58,700 nucleotides of DNA from contig JAFXQR010000094.1 of assembly GCA_017526985.1 (NCBI GenBank), forward strand, positions 1-58,700, read 5' to 3'. The notes beneath the pieces are model-generated. The model had not been told where the DNA came from and did not search any database. It was given only the letters and a program-made list of their open reading frames with translations. A program made the position numbers and the translations under genes. Source of the stretch: Lachnospiraceae bacterium (GTDB lineage: Bacteria; Bacillota; Clostridia; Lachnospirales; Lachnospiraceae). Shown here in pieces: positions 12,484 through 56,128 of the stretch (its first letter is position 1; every line of letters starts with the position of its first letter).

Positions 12484-13272
12484 TTACGACGAAGTGAGTC
12501 CACCTTTGAGCTCTTCCAGCTCTTTTTTGAGAGCAGCGATCTCGTCATCTTTCTCTGCAAGCTTCTCTTCGTACAGATCGACGATCGTTTCGGTACATTC
12601 CGTGAGAGAGACGATTTTTGATTTGAGGATGGTCACACCGCTTGACAGCTCCGGGTAGTTCTGTTTTGCGTAGCTGGATAGCGGATAGATATACTGGCGG
12701 GTCTCATCCACATATTTGTGAAGCTTTTCGAGCTTCATATTGTAAAGATCCTCCACATTATGGCTGCGGTCAGACATCTTGATCAGCAGAGCGATCTTGT
12801 TCTTCTTGATGCGGTTAAAATAGTCGTTGAGCTCGTACTCGTCCGCACCGGAATGCTTACTGAGCAGCGTGATGACTTCGTAGACCTCTTTCGGGAAGCC
12901 ATAGTCCGTCACGAGTTCGATCCCGCCCTTCGGGAAATACTGCTCTGCATCTTCAAGAGCATCGTGGAGAATGGCGGATGTATACAGCACATCGAGCTCA
13001 TCGTGTGCCATCGGCAGGCGCAGCGCCGCAAGTGTATTACACACTTTGAGCACATGGAGGATGTACGGAAGATGTACTTTCTTGCCATTCACCAGAGCAA
13101 GCCCTTTTCTGTGCTGCCCATCATGCAATTTCCTTGCAAGAGGCAGGGCTTTTAAAAGGTTGATATACTCACCCTCTACCGCCATTCCCTTGAGAAAAAG
13201 GTAGGATTTGATGTAGAGATACTCCTCCTCTACATTATAGCTTTCAATGATAGGAACAAGTTTCTTCTCCAT
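12484..13272 (-). CDS. HD-domain (p)ppGpp hydrolase-like protein, 262 aa
   Basis: The HD signature of RelA/SpoT and MESH1 enzymes is clear: LARKLHDGQHRKG near residue 48, HVLKVC near 72, AILHDALED near 98 and LLIKMSDRSHNVEDL near 160, giving the metal ligands H..HD..D. Such domains remove pyrophosphate from the alarmone (p)ppGpp. The synthetase and TGS domains of full RelA/SpoT are absent; instead a coiled coil (EEKLAEKDDEIAALKKELEEL) ends the protein. AGGAGG precedes the ATG. The nearest promoter motif is 589 bp upstream, beyond the 36-bp-repeat CRISPR array, so the array may form its 5-prime leader. Confidence 0.85.
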   Translation of the reverse strand: MEKKLVPIIESYNVEEEYLYIKSYLFLKGMAVEGEYINLLKALPLARKLHDGQHRKGLALVNGKKVHLPYILHVLKVCNTLAALRLPMAHDELDVLYTSAILHDALEDAEQYFPKGGIELVTDYGFPKEVYEVITLLSKHSGADEYELNDYFNRIKKNKIALLIKMSDRSHNVEDLYNMKLEKLHKYVDETRQYIYPLSSYAKQNYPELSSGVTILKSKIVSLTECTETIVDLYEEKLAEKDDEIAALKKELEELKGGLTSS

Positions 13273-13289: not shown

Positions 13290-13588
13290 ATTTTGTACCA
13301 ATGCTATTTCATAGGGGTCTAAAACTTCCTCTGTAATGCCGATTTCCTGGTGACGTTTTATACCCATGCTATTTTATAAGGGTCTAAAACAACGCTGTCT
13401 ATCAGATATTGAAGCATCAATTTTATACCCATGCTATTTCATAAGGCGTCTAAAACGAGCTACTTCTTGACGATGAAGTCCAGAATATTTTACACCCATG
13501 TTGTTTTGTAGGGTTCTAAAACTTTCAATGCCGCAAGAAATATCGCCACAAGGTTTTGTACCCGTGTAAAATACTACTTCTCCAAAAC
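13290..13588. CRISPR. CRISPR mini-array, five 36-bp repeats, type not assigned, no effector in window
   Basis: Repeats lie at 13290-13325, 13355-13390, 13420-13456 (one extra base), 13487-13522 and 13553-13588, with spacers of 29, 29, 30 and 30 bp, all different. On the plus strand repeats read GTTTTATACCCATGC... and end GGGTCTAAAAC. The fifth keeps its ends and its first 15 bases but has diverged inside, typical of a terminal repeat. The sequence is unrelated to the I-E repeats nearby. Terminal GTTTT/AAAAC and an inner ATGTTGTTTTG recall type II repeats; the CCC...GGG stem and CTAAAAC end recall type VI-D. I could not find a tracrRNA anti-repeat, Cas9 or Cas13. Direction of transcription is unresolved. 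Confidence 0.85.
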
Positions 13589-13852
13589 CTCGATCATCCT
13601 GTTTTGGAATATTGGTTATTAAAGAACACAGGTTTTAGTGAGTGAATACAGAAAACAACAAAGCTGACTTTTATCTGCCTCCTCACTATCCGGCCGCAAA
13701 ACCGGCCGCCACCGATACCTATTTGTATCAGTGAACCACTGTTTTTCCACAATGGATGAAGGAATTATAACACTATCCCACAAAGGGATTTTCTTCAAAG
13801 ACGCTGATTTTATCAGCTTTCCTTCGTACTAAGGTTTCAAAAGACAAAACCT
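13582..13852 (-). other. non-coding stretch with a chain of about eight hairpins
   Basis: No ORF is present. Inverted repeats follow one another: CCAAAAC/GTTTTGG (13582-13607), TAGTGAG/CTCACTA (13636-13688), CGGCCG/CGGCCG (13691-13708), GATAC/GTATC (13714-13729), CAGTG/CACTG with TTTTT on the plus strand (13729-13746), ATCCC/GGGAT (13775-13789), GCTGAT/ATCAGC (13803-13817) and AGGTTT/AAACCT (13832-13852). A near-consensus promoter motif at 13861 points into it leftward. It may be a structured RNA preceding the 36-bp-repeat array, or a rightward terminator of that array. The strand given is that of the promoter motif. Confidence 0.55.
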
Positions 13853-13886: not shown

Positions 13887-14091
13887 ATAATAAGAAATGT
13901 TCCGGAATATGTCTCGTTATAGCATCTGCGATAAATGCTTCTATCTCCGGTAGTATTTCGTCATTCCCGGTTTCCAACTGTTCCAGATACCACTCCGCCA
14001 GGCAGGCGGTCTCCGGAGATTTATACCGGGGGACCCTGGAGCAGACATTTTTGATGATCTTTAATTGATCAACGATCTTTTTTTTCTTCAT
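13882..14091 (-). CDS. small protein 69 aa (orfC), paralogue of the ORF next to cas1
   Basis: Shares QLxIIKNVCSRVPRYKxPE and AxWYLxQ with the 67-aa ORF at 25358, and both end PEHFL(L)W. The ATG overlaps the stop of the 230-aa gene upstream (ATGA) and has no strong site, so it should be translated by coupling. Helical, with one conserved Cys and a basic RVPRYK patch. No known family. The two copies bracket the whole I-E locus. Confidence 0.7.
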   Translation of the reverse strand: MKKKKIVDQLKIIKNVCSRVPRYKSPETACLAEWYLEQLETGNDEILPEIEAFIADAITRHIPEHFLLW

Positions 14092-14780
14092 TTTTCTGAA
14101 AAATACTTCTCGTAGTACCAAATCTTCTGACTTTTTGCCAGATCATAATTCTCTTTTGCTTTTGGAAAAGCATCAATATACGCCTGCAAAAGAGCTTTTG
14201 CTGTTTCTACTTCTTTTTCCATAAAAAAGCCCTCCAGCTCAAAATAACCACTTATCTTCAAAATATATGGCGCATAAGGATACTCATTTTGATAAGTAAA
14301 AGCTTTATCCGGAAATTCTAGTTTTAGAAGAGCACAAACCTCTTCCATTCGCTCTGTCAGGTCCAGTTCATCCTCAATCGCCTGTTTAAATACCAATGAC
14401 GAATAGCAGGCGCCAAGTTCGTCAATCAACGGTGTTGACCAGTCTGCCGTATCAATAATTTCCCTATATCTTCTTCCATGTCTGCGTAACATAATCTTGT
14501 AGGTACTATGAAAAGCACCGGGAATCATAATCAGACGGACATCTATATTTTGCCCCAATTCTTCGATATCGATCTTTCTGGACAAAATCTGGTCACGAAT
14601 CTTAATTAAAATCTGGTCACGGATTTCAATAACTCCTGCACATCCAAAGCTAAAACGCTCTCCAGTAAGAATAGATCTGTCATTCATACTTGTAACATCA
14701 ACTCCAAGAAGCTTTGCGTAATGCCACTTTGGAAAATGTTTTTCATATTTATGCTCTATCTTTTGTTCTGTTTTATTCAT
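14088..14780 (-). CDS. hypothetical protein, 230 aa (orfB), behind the cas operon
   Basis: A soluble protein of unknown family. An internal duplication, EIRDQILIKIRDQILSRKI, is visible around residues 52-70. A basic segment (IMLRRHGRRYREII) follows. The C-terminal third is helical and acidic. GGAGGTAAATAG precedes the ATG. It lies between the orfA gene (14-bp gap) and orfC (overlap), so the three genes form the tail of the transcript that comes from cas3. An accessory or anti-CRISPR-type role is possible only from context. Confidence 0.65.
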   Translation of the reverse strand: MNKTEQKIEHKYEKHFPKWHYAKLLGVDVTSMNDRSILTGERFSFGCAGVIEIRDQILIKIRDQILSRKIDIEELGQNIDVRLIMIPGAFHSTYKIMLRRHGRRYREIIDTADWSTPLIDELGACYSSLVFKQAIEDELDLTERMEEVCALLKLEFPDKAFTYQNEYPYAPYILKISGYFELEGFFMEKEVETAKALLQAYIDAFPKAKENYDLAKSQKIWYYEKYFSEK

Positions 14781-14793
14781 CTATTTACCTCCA

Positions 14794-15075
14794 TTATGCA
14801 GTCTTCTTCTGTTTCGCCTTATAATTAAAGGCCCGTTTCGCATTCTGTACGGTCTTATAGCCATAACCCTGCGCATCATCCACGATACGTCCATCTTTAT
14901 GCAGCAGCACATACGGGTTTTTATCTGCTTTTACAAGCTCCGGATCATAATGCACTAAAATCTCCGGATATCGCTTTGTATTTGATCTTCTGTTTCTGCA
15001 TTTCGAACGCAGCATCTGTTGACAGTATTCATGATAATTCCCCATATGTATGGGGTAAGGTTCTTCAATGCTCAT
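14794..15075 (-). CDS. small basic protein, 93 aa (orfA), N-terminus encoded by a CRISPR repeat
   Basis: The only good site, AGGAG ten bases before ATG 15075, lies inside a 33-bp I-E spacer. Residues 6-15 (PYPIHMGNYH) are read from an I-E repeat at 15032-15060. The body is basic (SKCRNRRSNTKRYPEIL) and ends in GYKTVQNAKRAFNYKAKQKK, suggesting nucleic-acid binding. Either the mini-array inserted into the 5-prime end of an older gene, or the array supplied a new start. An internal ATG at 15015 would give a 73-aa form but has no binding site. Confidence 0.55.
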   Translation of the reverse strand: MSIEEPYPIHMGNYHEYCQQMLRSKCRNRRSNTKRYPEILVHYDPELVKADKNPYVLLHKDGRIVDDAQGYGYKTVQNAKRAFNYKAKQKKTA

Positions 15076-15182
15076 TCCACGCAATCTCCTTTGGGGCAAT
15101 CCTCATATATATGGGGTAAAGCAAGACGGTATCATTCTATTTTTTACATAAATAGGGTAATCCTCATATGTATGGGGTAAAG
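15032..15182 (-). CRISPR. type I-E mini-array, three repeats, downstream of cas3
   Basis: Repeats at 15155-15182, 15094-15121 and 15032-15060 (29 bp, one extra T) are variants of the main I-E repeat (AATCCTCATATGTATGGGG core). Both spacers are exactly 33 bp, the I-E standard. Transcription direction, by analogy with known I-E repeats ending GATTATCC, is leftward, the same as the cas operon that ends 30 bp upstream. The first spacer to the left contains the start of orfA. Confidence 0.85.
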
Positions 15183-15211: not shown

Positions 15212-17932
15212 TTAATCCGTATTCTTTACAAATTCCAGTCCGTCTTCTGTTAATATCATGCAATACTCACCGTTATCCACACAAAGGTCTTTTGCTGTAA
15301 AAACAGCAATATCTTCCAGCCATTTAATGCCGGTATCTACCCGCTGCGCTTCAAAATCTTTTAAACGAGACAAACTTACGGAAGAGATCACATTCTTTTG
15401 CATAATCTGCTGCATCTCATCATAGGTGTATTCTTCTTTCAGTTCCGGGAGAATACAGATCGTTTCCGAAGGATAACTCTCATCCCTCGTCTTTGGAATC
15501 AGCGGATCAAAACGATGATACGCATCATCAGTGCCTTTGGTGGTAATCACTACATCTTTTGTCGGGCTCTCGATCACATGTCTACCGGCAGCAATCTGTT
15601 TTCCAAATTCACTCTCGATCTCGGTGTTATCATACACAGCATCAATCAGTCTGCGGACATCTGCGATTGTATCAATACCGGATAAACCTTGCAGCACTTC
15701 TTCAGTGGCAGACAGGATATTTTTCTCATAAATCCTGCCAAGGTTGCCGTATTTCTCCGGGCATAGGATAACAAACGGCTCTGAAATCGTGGAGTGTTCA
15801 CGCACTGTCCCAATATCGGAATGCCGCCATAGCCGCCCCATTCTCTGGATCAGCAGATCATCCGGGGCCAGGGCTGTGATCATCTTGTCAAAATCCACAT
15901 CCAGGGATTGCTCGATGATCGAGGTTGCTACAACGATCAGCTTTTTTGGACGACCGCTTCGGTCTTTTCCGCAGTATTTCAGCAGTTTTTCGATCTTTCC
16001 GGCTTTATGCCGGATCGTATCCCGGCCGTGGTACAAAAATACTTCGCCGTCTGTGGTCTCCCTCTGCAGTCTGCGGTATAAGTGGAAAGCAGTATCTACC
16101 GTAGGGGCAATCAATGCAAGGCAGCCCTCTGCAAAAGCCTTTGCCTCCCACATCATCGTTTCTTCTATATCTTTTACCCGCTGTACCGCAACCGGAATCT
16201 TTCTTCCGGGCATTGCAATCTCGGTTTCTGTTAATTCCTTTTCTTCTACGGTGCTGACCAGCGGATATGCGTCCGAAATTTCCGTACCTGAATACCCTGC
16301 TGCCTTAAATAATATCTTTTTTGTCTTGGTAGGCAGTGTTGCTGACAAAAGAACCACCGGAACTTTAAAAAACCGGCACCAGCGGATCAATGTTTCCAGT
16401 TCTTTTAGCATATAGGCATCGTAGGCGTGGATCTCATCAATCACCACAACCTTGTCAGATAGCCCCAAAAGCCCGATGCACGAGTACCGAAAAGACAAAA
16501 CGGATTTTAGGATCTGATCAACCGTACCAACTGCAAACGGATACAACCCCTGGTGTCTGGTCTTGCTTGTCCACAATTCCTTCGGGATTCGGCTCATATC
16601 GTCATTGCTCCAGACCATAGAGGAGTCCAGTTCCGGGATGGGGATATCAAAACCTGCCTTTATAGCCAGATCATGCATACGTTTTGCCAAACCTTTTGCT
16701 GTGGAAGTCGTCGGGGCTGCAAAATAAATACCACCCTTAAAACCATACTGTCGGATCGCTGCGATCAGCGCCGCCTCGGTTTTTCCGCACCCGCAGGGGG
16801 ATTCGATCAGCATCAGTCTTGAATGCTCTGCTTTCTGGCCGTAAACCGCTTCCTGCAGTTGATTTCGGTCAAAAGAAAACACGCTGGCCCAGCTGGCATT
16901 TTGGAGCCGGTCTTTAATCGAAATATGAGCCAGATGGTTATTTTGGATAAACCGCTCCGCTGCAGTATCTAAATCTGTAGTTTCTCTTCGGATCTCTTCC
17001 CATCTGGAGCCGGAAACGATCCAGTCTGTAGTCACCATAATAGACAGGATCAGATAGGTAAAGCCGTTAATCCCGCTCTGGCCGGTTATGGAAAACAGTT
17101 TTTCGGAAAAGACCCAGCGCTCTGAAATACGCTCGATCAATTCCTGCTGCACACACACCCATGCTTCCCAGCGTCCAGGTTCCGTTTTGGGCGGCATTCC
17201 CTCACTGATCTTTCGTGTTGTGCGCTTCCCCTGGTGATGAAACAGGATCAGATCGGAATAAATGGCAGCACCTTTTGCAGGAAAGCCGCTCTTTACAAGC
17301 CAGTCTCGGAGGATTTCGGTAGAGTATCTTTCGTGACGGATCTTTTCATCTTCCGGAAGGATATTTCCGGCAAGCATCAGTTTTACACAGGCATCTGCAG
17401 CGTCGCTCCCGGCCTCTGCAAGGCTCTTCTGAAACCCGGGATGTGCCTTCCCGATATCATGCAGGGCGCATAGCCAGGCAATAGAGCTGATCAGTTCATC
17501 TTTTGGTATTGTAAAGCGCTCCGACATTGTTTCGATCGCAGGAGCACCAATACCGTAGCGCATCAGGGCTTCTGCCACTACTCCGGCTTCCATTAAATGA
17601 TCGATCAGTTTTTTTGATGGTTTTGCATACAGATCCGAAACCGAAATCCCGTCTGATCGGATATATGGCAGCAGCAATCCGTCAAAATCTTCAAAACCGG
17701 CAGTATCTTTTGTTGTGCTTTCATAGGTAAAACCCTGCTCAGATTGGCTGGAATATACGATAAGTGCATTCGTATTTGTTTCTTTGATCTTCTTCCACAG
17801 AATTTCCCGGACTCCGGAAGAAATCGTTCCGCAAAACACATTTGCACGCAGTTCATACAGATATCTGCGGAGTTTTCCACGAACCGCATCCGATGGATTT
17901 TTCAGACACACCACACAAAGATTTTTTCTCAA
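15212..17932 (-). CDS. cas3: CRISPR-associated helicase/nuclease Cas3, type I-E, 906 aa
   Basis: Cas3 degrades DNA marked by Cascade. The N-terminal HD nuclease is present (WLCALHDIGKAHPGFQ near residue 135). The helicase has Walker A CGCGKTEAAL, the DExH-like box VVVIDEIHAYD, motif III LLSATLP and motif VI RMGRLWRH. Length is usual for I-E. The TTG start at 17932 is supported by GGAGG eight bases upstream. A hairpin lies in the 55-bp gap after cas6e, so cas3 may be expressed at lower level than the Cascade genes. All key motifs appear intact. Confidence 0.95.
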   Translation of the reverse strand: MRKNLCVVCLKNPSDAVRGKLRRYLYELRANVFCGTISSGVREILWKKIKETNTNALIVYSSQSEQGFTYESTTKDTAGFEDFDGLLLPYIRSDGISVSDLYAKPSKKLIDHLMEAGVVAEALMRYGIGAPAIETMSERFTIPKDELISSIAWLCALHDIGKAHPGFQKSLAEAGSDAADACVKLMLAGNILPEDEKIRHERYSTEILRDWLVKSGFPAKGAAIYSDLILFHHQGKRTTRKISEGMPPKTEPGRWEAWVCVQQELIERISERWVFSEKLFSITGQSGINGFTYLILSIMVTTDWIVSGSRWEEIRRETTDLDTAAERFIQNNHLAHISIKDRLQNASWASVFSFDRNQLQEAVYGQKAEHSRLMLIESPCGCGKTEAALIAAIRQYGFKGGIYFAAPTTSTAKGLAKRMHDLAIKAGFDIPIPELDSSMVWSNDDMSRIPKELWTSKTRHQGLYPFAVGTVDQILKSVLSFRYSCIGLLGLSDKVVVIDEIHAYDAYMLKELETLIRWCRFFKVPVVLLSATLPTKTKKILFKAAGYSGTEISDAYPLVSTVEEKELTETEIAMPGRKIPVAVQRVKDIEETMMWEAKAFAEGCLALIAPTVDTAFHLYRRLQRETTDGEVFLYHGRDTIRHKAGKIEKLLKYCGKDRSGRPKKLIVVATSIIEQSLDVDFDKMITALAPDDLLIQRMGRLWRHSDIGTVREHSTISEPFVILCPEKYGNLGRIYEKNILSATEEVLQGLSGIDTIADVRRLIDAVYDNTEIESEFGKQIAAGRHVIESPTKDVVITTKGTDDAYHRFDPLIPKTRDESYPSETICILPELKEEYTYDEMQQIMQKNVISSVSLSRLKDFEAQRVDTGIKWLEDIAVFTAKDLCVDNGEYCMILTEDGLEFVKNTD

Positions 17933-22888: not shown

Positions 22889-24324
22889 AGACAATCCTCA
22901 TACATATGAGGTAAAACCATATTGACAATAGCAATCAATCGTAATATGCGGATAATCCCCGTATACATGGGGTAGAGTGCCAAACGGCGATATGGTGTAA
23001 CGGCCATATAGGATAACCCCCGTATACACGGGGTAGAGGTAATTCAATACCCTCCTTGTGCGGACCGATAGGGATAATCCCCGTATACACGGGGTAGAGT
23101 CTTCACCATAGAAGATCTGCGGGTTTTTGATGGGATAATCCCCATGTATACGGGGTTGAGTCTGCCAGACTTTTATCAAAATCTCGGCTGTACGAATAAT
23201 CCCCATATGCATGGAGTAAAGTTCAGGTATTTCCCGCACCAGCCGATGATCTCTGGATAATCCCCACATACATGTGGTGAAGGACGACCTGGAAGGCCAG
23301 GACGCCATAGATGCTGGATAATCCCTATACATATGGGGGGAAGGAGCTATTCGTTGTCCCCGGGTGCTTCATCGGAGGATAATCCCCATATGTTATGGAG
23401 TGGAACCTGCATACAGCTTCAAAAGCTCCCGCACCACCGGAGAATCCCCATGTAACATGAGGTAGAGTCCCCTAATTGTATATATACCGCTGACAGTAAC
23501 GGATAATCCCCATATATATGGGGTGAAGTAGAGCAGCGGTGGTATGGACATAGGTTCAACCAGGACAATCCCCATATACATGGAGTGAAGCGTAAGAGAC
23601 GGCTGGATATCCATCCCCCGCCACGGATAATCCCCATATATGTGGGGTAAAAATGGATCGATGTACATTTTCGGCACTGGAAGAAGGATAATCCCCGTAT
23701 ATATGGGGTGAAGGTGATGGACGTAAAAGATCTGTTGAAAGAACTGGGATAATCCCCATACATGTGGGGTGAAGGTTTAGGGAAAGGGCAGCTACTACTG
23801 TATTCAGGGATAATCCTCATATATATGGGGTAAAGAAAAAAGGTGCAATAAGAATCCCTATATGGAGAGGATAATCCCCGTATATATGGGGTGAAGGATG
23901 CCTTTCTCGGATTACCATCCAAAAAGAACGGATAATCCCCGTATATACGGGGTAGAGGCTGGATATCTGCGTTTGCAGAAATGCCTGGTTGGATAATCCC
24001 CATATACATGGAGTGAAGCATCTTCGCCTGCAGCACGTCCATCAGATCCGCGGATAATCCCCATATACATGGAGTGAAGTTTTTTTCTGTAGTATTGTTT
24101 ATGCTGTCTATTAGGATAATCCCCATATACATGGAGTGAAGGGCTCTCCCGAGTGCCGAGTTGCCCATTTTTCAGGATAATCCCCATATACATGGAGTGA
24201 AGTTGGCGGTGTAAAGATCGGCAGTGGTTTGTCCAGGATAATCCCCATATACATGGAGTGAAGTCACCGTTGTTGTCGTATACCGGCTTCAGATCGGGAT
24301 AATCCCCATATACATGGAGTGAAG
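22889..24324 (-). CRISPR. type I-E CRISPR array, 24 repeats and 23 spacers
   Basis: Repeats of 28 bp (GGATAATCCCC...GTGAAG on the plus strand) recur every 61-62 bp, starting at 22889, 22950, 23011, 23072, 23133, 23194, 23255, 23316, 23377, 23439, 23501, 23563, 23625, 23686, 23747, 23808, 23869, 23930, 23991, 24052, 24114, 24175, 24236 and 24297. Spacers are about 33-34 bp. The six repeats at the high-coordinate end are identical and repeats decay toward 22889, so the leader is on the cas1 side and transcription is leftward. That matches the I-E sense ending GATTATCC. A promoter motif sits 78 bp upstream of the first repeat. Confidence 0.98.
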
Positions 24325-53215: not shown

Positions 53216-56128
53216 TTACGGGGTGCGTTCCCCGCTATCCCTCTGATCCAGAACATTTCTTACGATCGCTCTTGCCACATTTCCGGAAATGCGGTTGCTG
53301 CCTTCTTTTTCCGAATTCCGGCCAAAGGTCGGCAGATTAGACTCTTTTGCAGCATCCTTAATACGGTCTGCTTTCTCTGCAGCTCTTACCCGCTCATCCT
53401 CGGCGTAGTTATAATCCCACGCCTTTCCGAGCATCTGGTAGGTGCCTTTTAAGAACTCGTTATAAGTTCTGGAGAATACACCATTCTTCTGATCATTGAT
53501 CTCATGAACAATGTATTTTCCGGTCACCACCAGCTCTTCTCTGGCACGGGTTGCGCCTACAAACCACTTACGGATCTGCTCATCATACTCGCCATTTGCC
53601 TGATAAGTCGTCGGGCGGTCGTGATATTTCTGGTCGTCCAGCTTGTCCACACAAAGGAAAGTAGTATCCCACTCCAGACCTTTGGAGGAGTGGATCGTTG
53701 TCAGGCAGACACCATCATAACGGCCCTCACGCTTGAAGGTAGAGTCTTTTCCGTAGATCTTGAAGTCTTCCATAAACTCACAGATCTCATCTAAGTCTTT
53801 GCAGCCGTCGATCTTGCTCAAAAAATCCTGGTAACACTCATCATGCTCTTCCAGATCCAGGGCTTTTGCGAATTCCATAAAGGATTCCTTGGTCTTCTCG
53901 CACTGCATCACATCTTCCCGGAAGGATTCTGCGATCTCCTCAAGCTCACCACCGTTCTTACCACGAAGCGCACCGCCGGAAACCACATTACGGTAATCCA
54001 GAAAGCCCTGTGTAGAACGACCCATAAAAGCATCGTAGAATGTTGTCAGAGCACACACACGGGAGTTTTGGGTAACCAGGATCGGGCTCTTTAAGGTGGA
54101 CGGAACTCCGAGCTTGGTCAGAGCATCCGCAACACCGGACAGCTCAAAACGGTCGGACATAATCACCGCAATATCGTGGTTACCGGCGTCCCAGCGCTCT
54201 TTTACCTGTTTTGCGATCCATTCATATTCCTGTTTTTCGGAATAGAATCCCTGTACGCCCGGCATATTACCTTCCGGTTTGGTTGCGATCAGCTCTTTAT
54301 TTACCTTCACACGAGCAAGATCGTTTACCTTGTTCGCATAATCGATCGTGCGGCGGTTGGATCTGTGGTTCTCTACCAGGGAAAAGTCATCAAAGCGGCC
54401 AAAATAGGAACCGAAATTCACCATATATTCCGGAGAAGTATGGCGGAATGCGAAGATCGACTGGGAATCGTCTCCGACACACATCAGCGACTTAAACTGC
54501 GGGATATCGATCATCTTCTGTAAAAGCTGAATCTGCGGAAGGTCGGTATCCTGGAACTCATCCACAATGATATGCTCATACCCCATCTCTTCGAACAGAT
54601 GCGGATTGATCTGCAGCAGCTGGTTCACGTACAGCAGCTGGTCATCAAATTCCAGAAAACCACGCTCTTTCATCTGGATATTGTACTCGTCGCACATCAT
54701 AAAGAGATAATCCAGATCATTCGGGGTATACATCGAATTCCATGCAGGCGGGTAGTTATCTCTGGTATACCCCTCTTTCTTGATCAGTGCAAAATCATCC
54801 GTTGCACGGACAAACGCTACTTTGGAAGTGCTCCTGCGGTAGATCTTCTGTGCTGCAGAAGAATACGACCATGCGGAGATCTTTGGAAACTGATCCAGGA
54901 TACGGTTGATGATCGAACGCTGTGTTTCGCCAGGGACAACTCTCGGCATACGGTCAAATCCGAGCAGCTCATAGTTGAACTTGTCCGGGTTATTATGCTG
55001 CGGAGCGCAGATAATATCCTGACAAAAAGCATTGAATGTCGAAGATGTAAACTTATCCGGATCTACCGGGACCCCGGCTGCTGCAGAATATGCTACTGCT
55101 CTTGCTGTCATTTCGCCGGCACCTGCGTTGGTAAACGTAAGCAGGCAGATCTTCTCCGGATCAGCGCCGTTCTTTACCAGTTCTGCTACACGAAGAGATA
55201 CTACCAGTGTTTTTCCGGAACCCGGACCTGCATTTACACGGGCAATACCACGGTCATAATTAACTACATTTCTCTGATCATTTGACAGACGAACCTCACC
55301 TGCCGGACGGACTGCTTCCGAAGCCGGAGCCGGGATCGGAGGCTCTTCAAAATGGCAGATATTATTCATCGCACAGCCGGCACAGTCCTCCGGGGAGCAT
55401 CCGGTGTGCTCATTTTCCTGCTTCGTTTTCTGGATCTCTTCACGGATAGCTTCTTTTCTCGGTTCGTCGAAGTATTCCTCTGCGATCTTATTCAGGTTGT
55501 CACTGCTGTCATCATACGGATAATTTACACGGCCGTCTCCGACTGCAGAAAACGCCATCTTCTCATAAGCATCTGTTTTCTCACCAAGATAGAGATACTG
55601 GATCACGACCTTCTTATTTGTGCCTTCCGCCAGCTTCTCTCCGGCAAGACCAAAGCAGTATGCTTCCGGAGATTTCAAAGCCTCCGAAGCCAGAGATGGA
55701 TTGTAACGCCCGGTCTTGATCTTGCACATATAGATATTCTCTTCATCTTCGGTCACATAGTCCGGTTTTACTTCTACCTGCTCGCCGAAATAATCCACAG
55801 CGATCGGTCCGGCCTCTGTCAGCTGGTTGGCAAAGCGGATATTTCCGTTAGACCGGTTGCGCTCCCAATCTGTAAAACGCACAATACGACGGGATGCGGT
55901 AGACAGCCAGGCTTCTTTCTGGTTGATATTCTCCCAGATATGTCCTCTGGCATCCAGAGTATTTGCCAATTCTCCACGGACATCCGTGATCGGTTCGCCC
56001 ATCAGCATACGCCGGATCACGGATTTCTGCGCTACTGCAAGGTTCAATGCTTCCGAGCTCTGCGTAATGCTGGCATTCGGATTAAACTCGCAGGAATCGC
56101 TTTTTCTCAACTGTGATGATGTTCTCAT
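53216..56128 (-). CDS. nuclease-UvrD/Rep-type superfamily 1 helicase fusion, 970 aa
   Basis: The helicase half (from about residue 285) has VNAGPGSGKTLVVSLRVAEL (Walker A), LLTFTNAGAGEMTARA, IIVDEFQDTDLPQIQLL (Walker B), CVGDDSQSIFAFRHTSP, and VCLTTIHSSKGLEWDTTFL with VGATRAREELVV. Before it, VEVKPDYVTEDEENIYMCKIKTG resembles a PD-(D/E)XK core, and CSPEDCAGCAMNNIC looks like a Cys cluster as in AddB or Cas4 Fe-S nucleases. This predicts coupled unwinding and cutting of DNA. The classic Glu-x-Lys is only partly kept (KIK). CAGGAGGAAAAAGA precedes the ATG. Confidence 0.9.
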   Translation of the reverse strand: MRTSSQLRKSDSCEFNPNASITQSSEALNLAVAQKSVIRRMLMGEPITDVRGELANTLDARGHIWENINQKEAWLSTASRRIVRFTDWERNRSNGNIRFANQLTEAGPIAVDYFGEQVEVKPDYVTEDEENIYMCKIKTGRYNPSLASEALKSPEAYCFGLAGEKLAEGTNKKVVIQYLYLGEKTDAYEKMAFSAVGDGRVNYPYDDSSDNLNKIAEEYFDEPRKEAIREEIQKTKQENEHTGCSPEDCAGCAMNNICHFEEPPIPAPASEAVRPAGEVRLSNDQRNVVNYDRGIARVNAGPGSGKTLVVSLRVAELVKNGADPEKICLLTFTNAGAGEMTARAVAYSAAAGVPVDPDKFTSSTFNAFCQDIICAPQHNNPDKFNYELLGFDRMPRVVPGETQRSIINRILDQFPKISAWSYSSAAQKIYRRSTSKVAFVRATDDFALIKKEGYTRDNYPPAWNSMYTPNDLDYLFMMCDEYNIQMKERGFLEFDDQLLYVNQLLQINPHLFEEMGYEHIIVDEFQDTDLPQIQLLQKMIDIPQFKSLMCVGDDSQSIFAFRHTSPEYMVNFGSYFGRFDDFSLVENHRSNRRTIDYANKVNDLARVKVNKELIATKPEGNMPGVQGFYSEKQEYEWIAKQVKERWDAGNHDIAVIMSDRFELSGVADALTKLGVPSTLKSPILVTQNSRVCALTTFYDAFMGRSTQGFLDYRNVVSGGALRGKNGGELEEIAESFREDVMQCEKTKESFMEFAKALDLEEHDECYQDFLSKIDGCKDLDEICEFMEDFKIYGKDSTFKREGRYDGVCLTTIHSSKGLEWDTTFLCVDKLDDQKYHDRPTTYQANGEYDEQIRKWFVGATRAREELVVTGKYIVHEINDQKNGVFSRTYNEFLKGTYQMLGKAWDYNYAEDERVRAAEKADRIKDAAKESNLPTFGRNSEKEGSNRISGNVARAIVRNVLDQRDSGERTP

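What the first reader, a model, noticed from the sequence alone, without database searches (positions are those of the whole stretch)
13290..13588. Orphan five-repeat CRISPR array of a second type beside a complete I-E system
Seen: 36-bp repeats with 29-30-bp unique spacers and a decayed terminal repeat, unrelated to the I-E repeats. Known: GTTTT/AAAAC ends and an inner ATGTTGTTTTG are typical of type II; a CCC..GGG stem with a CTAAAAC end is typical of type VI-D (Cas13d) repeats as I recall them. Inference: the array depends on an effector supplied in trans by the host or another element, or it has been kept for its spacers (decoy or regulatory guides). No Cas9, Cas13 or tracrRNA is visible here.
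Basis: partly seen in the sequence, partly recalled or inferred. Interest (0 to 1): 0.8.

Follow-up and report, generated by a model that had tools for sequence, protein, structure and literature searches.

The report
Effector-less Cas12f-type guide RNA cassette
A small CRISPR array on a mobile element, first taken for a Cas9- or Cas13-type array, lies beside a helper RNA of the miniature Cas12f kind but has no Cas12f gene with it, so it looks like a guide-only cassette that either borrows a protein from elsewhere or is a leftover of a lost system.

Summary
The array is real: five 36-37-nt repeats with four unique 29-30-nt spacers at 13290-13588. It is most likely neither type II nor VI-D. The closest repeats found are mini-arrays on Enterococcus plasmids (32/36); in seven plasmid loci examined a Cas12f-like gene (V-F1, V-U3 lineage) lies beside them. 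Such loci carry a tracrRNA beside the array. A covariance model of its core, built without the window, hits the window at 13709-13627, minus strand, directly beside the array (34.0 bits, E 9.5e-8; next best in the window 9.9). All 14 modelled pairs form, and the tail pairs with the 'decayed' repeat better than 500 of 500 shuffles. So the array probably reads on the minus strand and that repeat is its first. No Cas12f gene is in the window; the one strong family match in the host genome is a TnpB. Best reading: a guide-only V-F cassette that uses, or has lost, a Cas12f; which is undecided. No convincing spacer target was found. New variant of a known kind.

The parts
13627..13709 (-). tracrRNA core of the Cas12f (V-F1/V-U3) kind: hairpin I plus stem II
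   Evidence: Covariance model R1, built from 7 Cas12f-locus sequences without the window: 34.0 bits, E 9.5e-8, full length, all 14 pairs standard
13589..13634 (-). tracrRNA tail with a two-part anti-repeat (13634-13600)
   Evidence: Duplex with repeat 13553-13588: -22.1 kcal/mol, 0 of 500 shuffles as good; weaker with the other repeats (-9.1 to -13.6)
13710..13765 (-). predicted 5' hairpins of the same transcript (inferred)
   Evidence: Stretch 13553-13765 minus folds at -71.6 kcal/mol, z -5.41, 0 of 200 shuffles
13553..13588 (-). repeat 5 of the finding; first repeat in the minus reading, matched to the tracrRNA tail
13523..13552 (-). spacer 4, 30 nt (first guide)
   Evidence: no exact match of its first 19 letters in viral contigs
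13487..13522 (-). repeat 4; 32 of 36 identical to a repeat on an E. faecium plasmid
13457..13486 (-). spacer 3, 30 nt
   Evidence: best partial match 22/30
13420..13456 (-). repeat 3, 37 nt (one inserted base)
13391..13419 (-). spacer 2, 29 nt
   Evidence: best partial match 21/29
13355..13390 (-). repeat 2
13326..13354 (-). spacer 1, 29 nt
   Evidence: no exact match of its first 19 letters in viral contigs
13290..13325 (-). repeat 1; last repeat in the minus reading, 17 nt before the start codon of the HD gene
14088..14780 (-). 230-aa gene of unknown family, the nearest annotated-size gene on the side where the effector gene stands in related loci; not Cas12f
   Evidence: No Pfam match at 0.001, no PADLOC match at 0.1; no Cas12f HMM match in the window
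12484..13272 (-). HD-domain-like protein gene directly downstream of the array
   Evidence: Pfam HD E 8.5e-4, under the curated cut-off

Best explanation
This is a type V-F (Cas12f1, V-U3 lineage) guide RNA cassette without its effector gene. Minus-strand transcription of about 13765 to 13290 would give a tracrRNA followed by four repeat-spacer units. The tracrRNA tail pairs with the repeats, and a Cas12f protein supplied in trans by the host or a co-resident element would use the four guides against DNA of competing elements. Shown: array, tracrRNA core, its pairing with the first repeat, absence of an effector in the window. Inferred: transcription and its strand, processing, a trans-acting Cas12f, the targets. 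I put the type and strand at about 0.88 and functional use in trans at about 0.5.
For: Model R1 from five divergent groups of Cas12f loci (window left out; pairs covary) hits beside the array at E 9.5e-8 with filters off and with default filters. The best of 44 control loci (461,686 bases, default filters) is 12.5 bits; with filters off on 7 of them (89,598 bases) 13.1 bits. The window's row forms all 14 pairs, two by types not seen in the other seven rows (C-G at columns 7-18, A-U at 32-76). The tail pairs with repeat 5, 0 of 500 shuffles as good. The order tracrRNA-then-repeats is that of L138 (one repeat), L139, L152 and the Enterococcus plasmids and of minimal loci described in passages of PMC7229846. 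Repeat match up to 32/36. The RNA is strongly folded (z -5.41). Intact pairs and a matched anti-repeat suggest selection.
Against: No Cas12f in the window. In the host genome the only match at E 1e-20 or better is a TnpB with a zinc finger and no array; the genome is 92% complete. Strong Cas12u3 matches (E 1e-90 or better) are in only 2 of 299 family genomes, while Cas9 is over the cut-off in 25 of 200. No spacer has a convincing target. Only 1 of 397 family genomes has this repeat, its own. Repeats differ from each other. One promoter-like site lies upstream on the minus strand (13915-13887), no more than chance (2 in all, shuffles 3.2), and three terminator-like hairpins face the plus strand (expected 0.7). 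Pairing of the tail with repeats 1-4 is weak, and repeat 5 is next to the tail, so that pairing could be a plain local hairpin. In L156 the core lies beyond the repeats, not before them. R1 scores up to 24.3 bits inside ordinary reading frames over 160 genomes. I picked the region to model after seeing its likeness to the window.
Confidence: 0.52

Rival explanations
1. Relic: the element once held a whole V-F locus and lost the cas12f gene; tracrRNA and array are decaying remains without function.
For: Effector missing; a 230-aa gene of unknown family stands nearest on that side. Repeats diverge, one carries an insertion; no targets found.
Against: All 14 core pairs intact, tail matched to repeat 5, no trace of a cas12f fragment. 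Two Enterococcus plasmid loci (L106, L108) hold two tracrRNA cores each, so extra modules do persist.
Confidence: 0.33
2. RNA decoy: the cassette makes tracrRNA and crRNA-like RNA that ties up a rival Cas12f, an RNA-type anti-CRISPR.
For: Repeat-like RNAs on mobile elements do this for other types (PMC10651486, passages read); diverged repeats fit.
Against: Those are solitary repeat units; here are four spacers and a tracrRNA, which would make an active guide. The passages read name no V-F case.
Confidence: 0.08
3. Orphan type II-A array used by a host Cas9, like the orphan CRISPR2 of E. faecalis (search listing).
For: Repeat 2 is up to 27/36 like family II repeats; Cas9 is over the cut-off in 25 of 200 family genomes, among them a same-genus one whose repeat is 25/36 like repeat 2.
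Against: No Cas9 over cut-off in the own genome. The likely anti-repeat of the same-genus Cas9 locus pairs at -27.2 with its own repeat and at -6.9 to -13.2 with these on the minus strand, -3.7 to -10.2 on the plus strand. A V-F tracrRNA core stands beside the array.
Confidence: 0.05
4. Orphan type VI-D (Cas13d) array.
For: A VI-D-like pattern of the repeat, scanned over the genome collection, hit one locus, a Cas13d locus; up to 27/36 identity.
Against: No Cas13d in the own genome and only one weak match (17.8 bits) in 291 of the class; a tracrRNA core is present on the other strand.
Confidence: 0.02

Closest known systems
Subtype V-F1 CRISPR-Cas12f loci (V-U3 lineage), PMC7229846 (passages read)
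   Same: tracrRNA beside the array, same core fold, 36-nt repeats, about 30-nt spacers
   Different: no effector gene here
Mini-arrays on Enterococcus plasmids (114 of 72,556 plasmid records match one such array at E up to 0.1; ten loci looked at, one of them, L094, a chance match)
   Same: repeat up to 32/36, tracrRNA core, order of tracrRNA and array
   Different: related Cas12f-like genes lie beside the arrays in L093, L096, L097, L105, L107, L109 and L110; in L107 and L109 a RuvC residue and the C-terminus are lost
Virus- and plasmid-borne CRISPR mini-arrays (review PMC11656645, abstract and passages)
   Same: short array on a mobile element, host effector in trans proposed
   Different: this one has a tracrRNA core beside it; no matching host system found
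Plasmid-borne V-M (Cas12m) systems (PMC11656645, passages)
   Same: type V on mobile elements, inter-plasmid conflict
   Different: those carry the effector
RNA anti-CRISPRs (PMC10651486, passages)
   Same: repeat-derived RNA on a mobile element without its cas genes
   Different: those are solitary repeats; here four spacers plus tracrRNA

Membership tests
V-F1 (Cas12f1/V-U3) CRISPR-Cas system | Cas12f effector gene at the locus | tested here: not met
   No HMM match in the window, best E 3.5; own genome only a TnpB
V-F1 (Cas12f1/V-U3) CRISPR-Cas system | tracrRNA core of this lineage next to the array | tested here: met
   34.0 bits, E 9.5e-8
V-F1 (Cas12f1/V-U3) CRISPR-Cas system | anti-repeat pairing between tracrRNA and repeats | tested here: inconclusive
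   Share of 500 shuffles as good: repeat 5 0; repeat 2 0.046; repeats 1, 3, 4 0.35, 0.12, 0.11. Seven known loci also mixed, 0.002 to 0.83
V-F1 (Cas12f1/V-U3) CRISPR-Cas system | array of about 36-nt repeats and 30-nt spacers | tested here: met
V-F1 (Cas12f1/V-U3) CRISPR-Cas system | crRNA made and used by Cas12f | not testable with these tools
   needs RNA sequencing and an assay
Type II-A orphan array | Cas9 in the genome | tested here: not met
   No match over the cut-off; one weak stretch, 26.1 bits, with stops; genome 92% complete
Type II-A orphan array | repeat pairs with a Cas9 tracrRNA | tested here: not met
   One Cas9 locus tested, same genus: -6.9 to -13.2 (minus) against -27.2 for its own repeat
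Type VI-D | Cas13d in the genome | tested here: not met
   0 matches
Type VI-D | repeat of VI-D sequence | tested here: inconclusive
   Up to 27/36 to L009, tied with type II repeats
RNA anti-CRISPR (Racr) | solitary repeat matching the host's CRISPR type | tested here: not met
   Five repeats; no V-F system found in the host genome

The most novel reading that the evidence does not exclude
A self-contained guide-only type V-F module (tracrRNA plus array) that mobile elements carry without cas12f and that reprogrammes a Cas12f, perhaps a naturally dead one such as those on enterococcal plasmids, belonging to another element in the same cell.
Probability: 0.35. Interest if true: 0.75.

Novelty: new variant of a known kind. 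Interest (0 to 1): 0.52.

Why it matters
Typing this orphan array by its repeat alone gave the wrong type and strand; the adjacent tracrRNA core decided it. If the cassette works in trans, mobile elements can carry guides without the effector, and searching for V-F tracrRNA cores away from cas12f genes would show how common that is. It also points to enterococcal plasmids that pair CRISPR arrays with an apparently dead Cas12f.

Tried and rejected
Repeat comparison alone: tied between type II and VI-D, so it could not decide. Cas13d in 291 genomes of the class: one match of 17.8 bits, E 6.3e-4, not convincing. The HD gene as a marker of sister elements: best relative in the family 42% identical, 195 bits; no tracrRNA hit in the 20 of 30 HD loci scanned; a 64% relative on a 290-kb viral contig, no repeat-like stretch over 22/36 in the 12.7 kb held. 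R1 over 160 genomes: apart from G009, two hits of 24.3 and 22.5 bits (L160, L161), both inside long reading frames (717 and 313 aa), so taken as chance. The same search missed the window's own match, probably because of its stricter filters, so its zeros prove little; the HMM contained a wrong ORF for L139; repeated; the 'anti-repeat' was an array repeat; repeated. Of the many chance-level matches of the array in 100 family genomes only L164-L168 were looked at. Partial spacer matches L162, L166, L168, L169 (20-22 letters) judged chance, as was L164 (26/36 to repeat 2; tracrRNA score 7.8 bits or less). Cas9 loci: 20 fetched, arrays kept from 16; none found by my script in L045, L055, L058, L060, and two stretches of N in L049 dropped.

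Full report
Observation. The five repeats and four spacers are present at 13290-13588, and no other place in the window reaches 22 of 35 matches to repeat 2. A 101-base query finds the array at this one place in the whole genome G000 (4.09 Mb, 220 contigs, 92.5% complete), and 0 of the other 396 family genomes searched have the repeat with up to 3 mismatches.

Type by repeat alone fails. Twenty Cas9 loci of the host family were fetched; a script kept one array repeat from each of 16 (two of them plainly unlike the rest), and four VI-D repeats were added (one after PMC8869480, passages read; three from L009). Repeat 2 reaches at most 27/36 for both types. A VI-D-like pattern scanned over the genome collection hit one locus, L009, beside a Cas13d gene. 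The host genome has no Cas13d and no Cas9 over the cut-off, although 25 of 200 family genomes have Cas9 over it.

The lead. A permissive blastn of the array (E up to 10) found 87 plasmid records, 74 of them Enterococcus, and 5 phage records. Of four Enterococcus places opened, two hold mini-arrays (L093, L097), one a single repeat (L096) and one is a chance match (L094); the best repeat matches repeat 4 at 32/36. The L093 array finds 114 plasmid records at E up to 0.1, all Enterococcus, 85 over at least 80% of the query; six more were opened. In seven loci (L093, L096, L097, L105, L107, L109, L110) related genes of 278-408 aa lie beside the array. The L107 protein matches PADLOC Cas12f (E 5.8e-45) and Cas12u3 (E 4.7e-43) and Cas12f and TnpB structures. 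L106 has no annotation and the gene in L108 was not compared.

The tracrRNA. Searching Cas12u3 gave 20 of 299 family genomes at E 1e-20, the top two at 1.5e-116 (G009, L138) and 1.4e-90 (G266, L139), the other 18 at 2.9e-47 or weaker, and 4 of 245 class genomes at E 1e-40, the top at 1.7e-118 (G421, L152). tblastn gave a Bacillus arachidis plasmid (L156). In these loci and in the Enterococcus plasmids a stretch near the repeats holds hairpin I and stem II. In L138 only one repeat follows; in L156 the core lies about 0.4 kb after the gene with repeats between, so the order differs there. Seven sequences aligned without the window show 94.8% paired cells (0 of 500 shuffles as high), 7 of 14 pairs changed on both sides (5 of 500 shuffles as high), 13 further pair types (36 of 500) and no slid version above 50.5%. 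The model R1 hits the window at 13709-13627 minus with 34.0 bits, E 9.5e-8, with all pairs standard; the next hit has 9.9 bits with filters off, none appears with default filters. Among 44 control loci (461,686 bases, default filters) the best is 12.5 bits; with filters off on 7 of these (89,598 bases) 13.1. Over 160 family genomes two hits inside reading frames reach 24.3 and 22.5 bits. With the window added to the alignment all its 14 pairs are standard, with two pair types not seen in the other rows. Cautions: three of the seven sequences are close E. faecium copies; E-values of the model are rough; and I chose the stretch after noticing its likeness to the window.

Anti-repeat. The tail 13634-13600 pairs with repeat 5 at -22.1 kcal/mol (0 of 500 shuffles as good), with repeat 2 at -13.1 (0.046), and less clearly with repeats 3, 4 and 1 (0.12, 0.11, 0.35). 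Of seven known loci, L156 and L139 gave 0.002 and 0.010 and the five others 0.10 to 0.83, so the test is weak. Repeat 5 adjoins the tail, so a local hairpin is a plainer reading of that pairing. The minus strand 13765-13553 folds with z -5.41. One minus-strand promoter-like site (13915-13887) is no more than chance, and three terminator-like hairpins face the plus strand.

Missing effector. A Cas12f HMM finds nothing in the window (best E 3.5) while scoring the host TnpB at 81 bits; L138 and L152 also score but are part of the HMM. The host match at G000:C47 carries a zinc finger, reads as a TnpB and has no array that my script saw in the 13 kb fetched. The genes 14088-14780 and 14794-15099 have no family match at E 0.001.

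Targets. First 19 letters of each guide in viral contigs: 0, 1, 1 and 0 hits for spacers 1, 2, 3 and 4; the two hits extend to only 21/29 and 22/30. In 100 family genomes the array gave chance-level matches, of which the five best outside the own genome were looked at. A hint from relatives: one spacer of the L108 plasmid array is 30/30 identical to two contigs filed as Listeria phages, one of which encodes a RepA_N plasmid replication protein (Pfam E 4.6e-28); this fits plasmid-against-plasmid targeting.

Reading. Type V-F1 tracrRNA-array cassette, minus strand, without effector: about 0.88. Use in trans against relic: open, with a mild lean to use because the core pairs and the anti-repeat are kept. 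Known work: Cas12f V-U3 loci without adaptation genes in Clostridia and Bacilli (PMC7229846, abstract and passages), mini-arrays and V-F enrichment on plasmids (PMC11656645, abstract and passages), RNA anti-CRISPRs (PMC10651486, passages). The orphan CRISPR2 of E. faecalis is cited from the search listing only. Searches (no paper; 8; 12 listed of 106; 12 listed of 13; 5) listed none that I recognised as describing a tracrRNA-array module of this kind without effector; I did not open most of them, and the library holds open-access papers only.

Noticed in passing
L107:1778-3004, L109:1710-2882 (Enterococcus plasmids): Cas12f-like proteins beside mini-arrays lack the RuvC-I aspartate in the alignment (FADLCS/FTDLCS against VDLG) and end before the zinc finger and RuvC-III: apparently natural dead Cas12f (motif names recalled).
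   Followed up: partly
L106 and L108: Two tracrRNA cores with arrays in tandem on one plasmid, each core over 72 bits.
   Followed up: partly
L108:1947-1976: Spacer 30/30 identical to contigs filed as Listeria phages LM 4-14-1 and LM 4-11-1; the first encodes a RepA_N plasmid replication protein.
   Followed up: partly
L095, L098-L104: Streptococcal satellite phage Javan208 and seven viral contigs carry one to four related repeats, in several cases beside an integrase-like gene, without Cas12f and without a tracrRNA hit; some spacers look palindromic.
   Followed up: partly
15212-17932: Cas2 and Cas3 domains fused in one 906-aa I-E protein.
   Followed up: no
15000-15100 and 23000-24300: Further repeats of period 61-62, probably I-E arrays.
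   Followed up: no
53216-56128: UvrD-like helicase with a PD-(D/E)XK stretch, PADLOC GajB-like.
   Followed up: no
L138:1160-2530: Cas12f frame in G009 is interrupted by a stop before the zinc finger, while its tracrRNA core scores 51.5 bits (in the model by construction).
   Followed up: no
L009: Cas13d locus in a Ruminiclostridium MAG with varied repeats.
   Followed up: no
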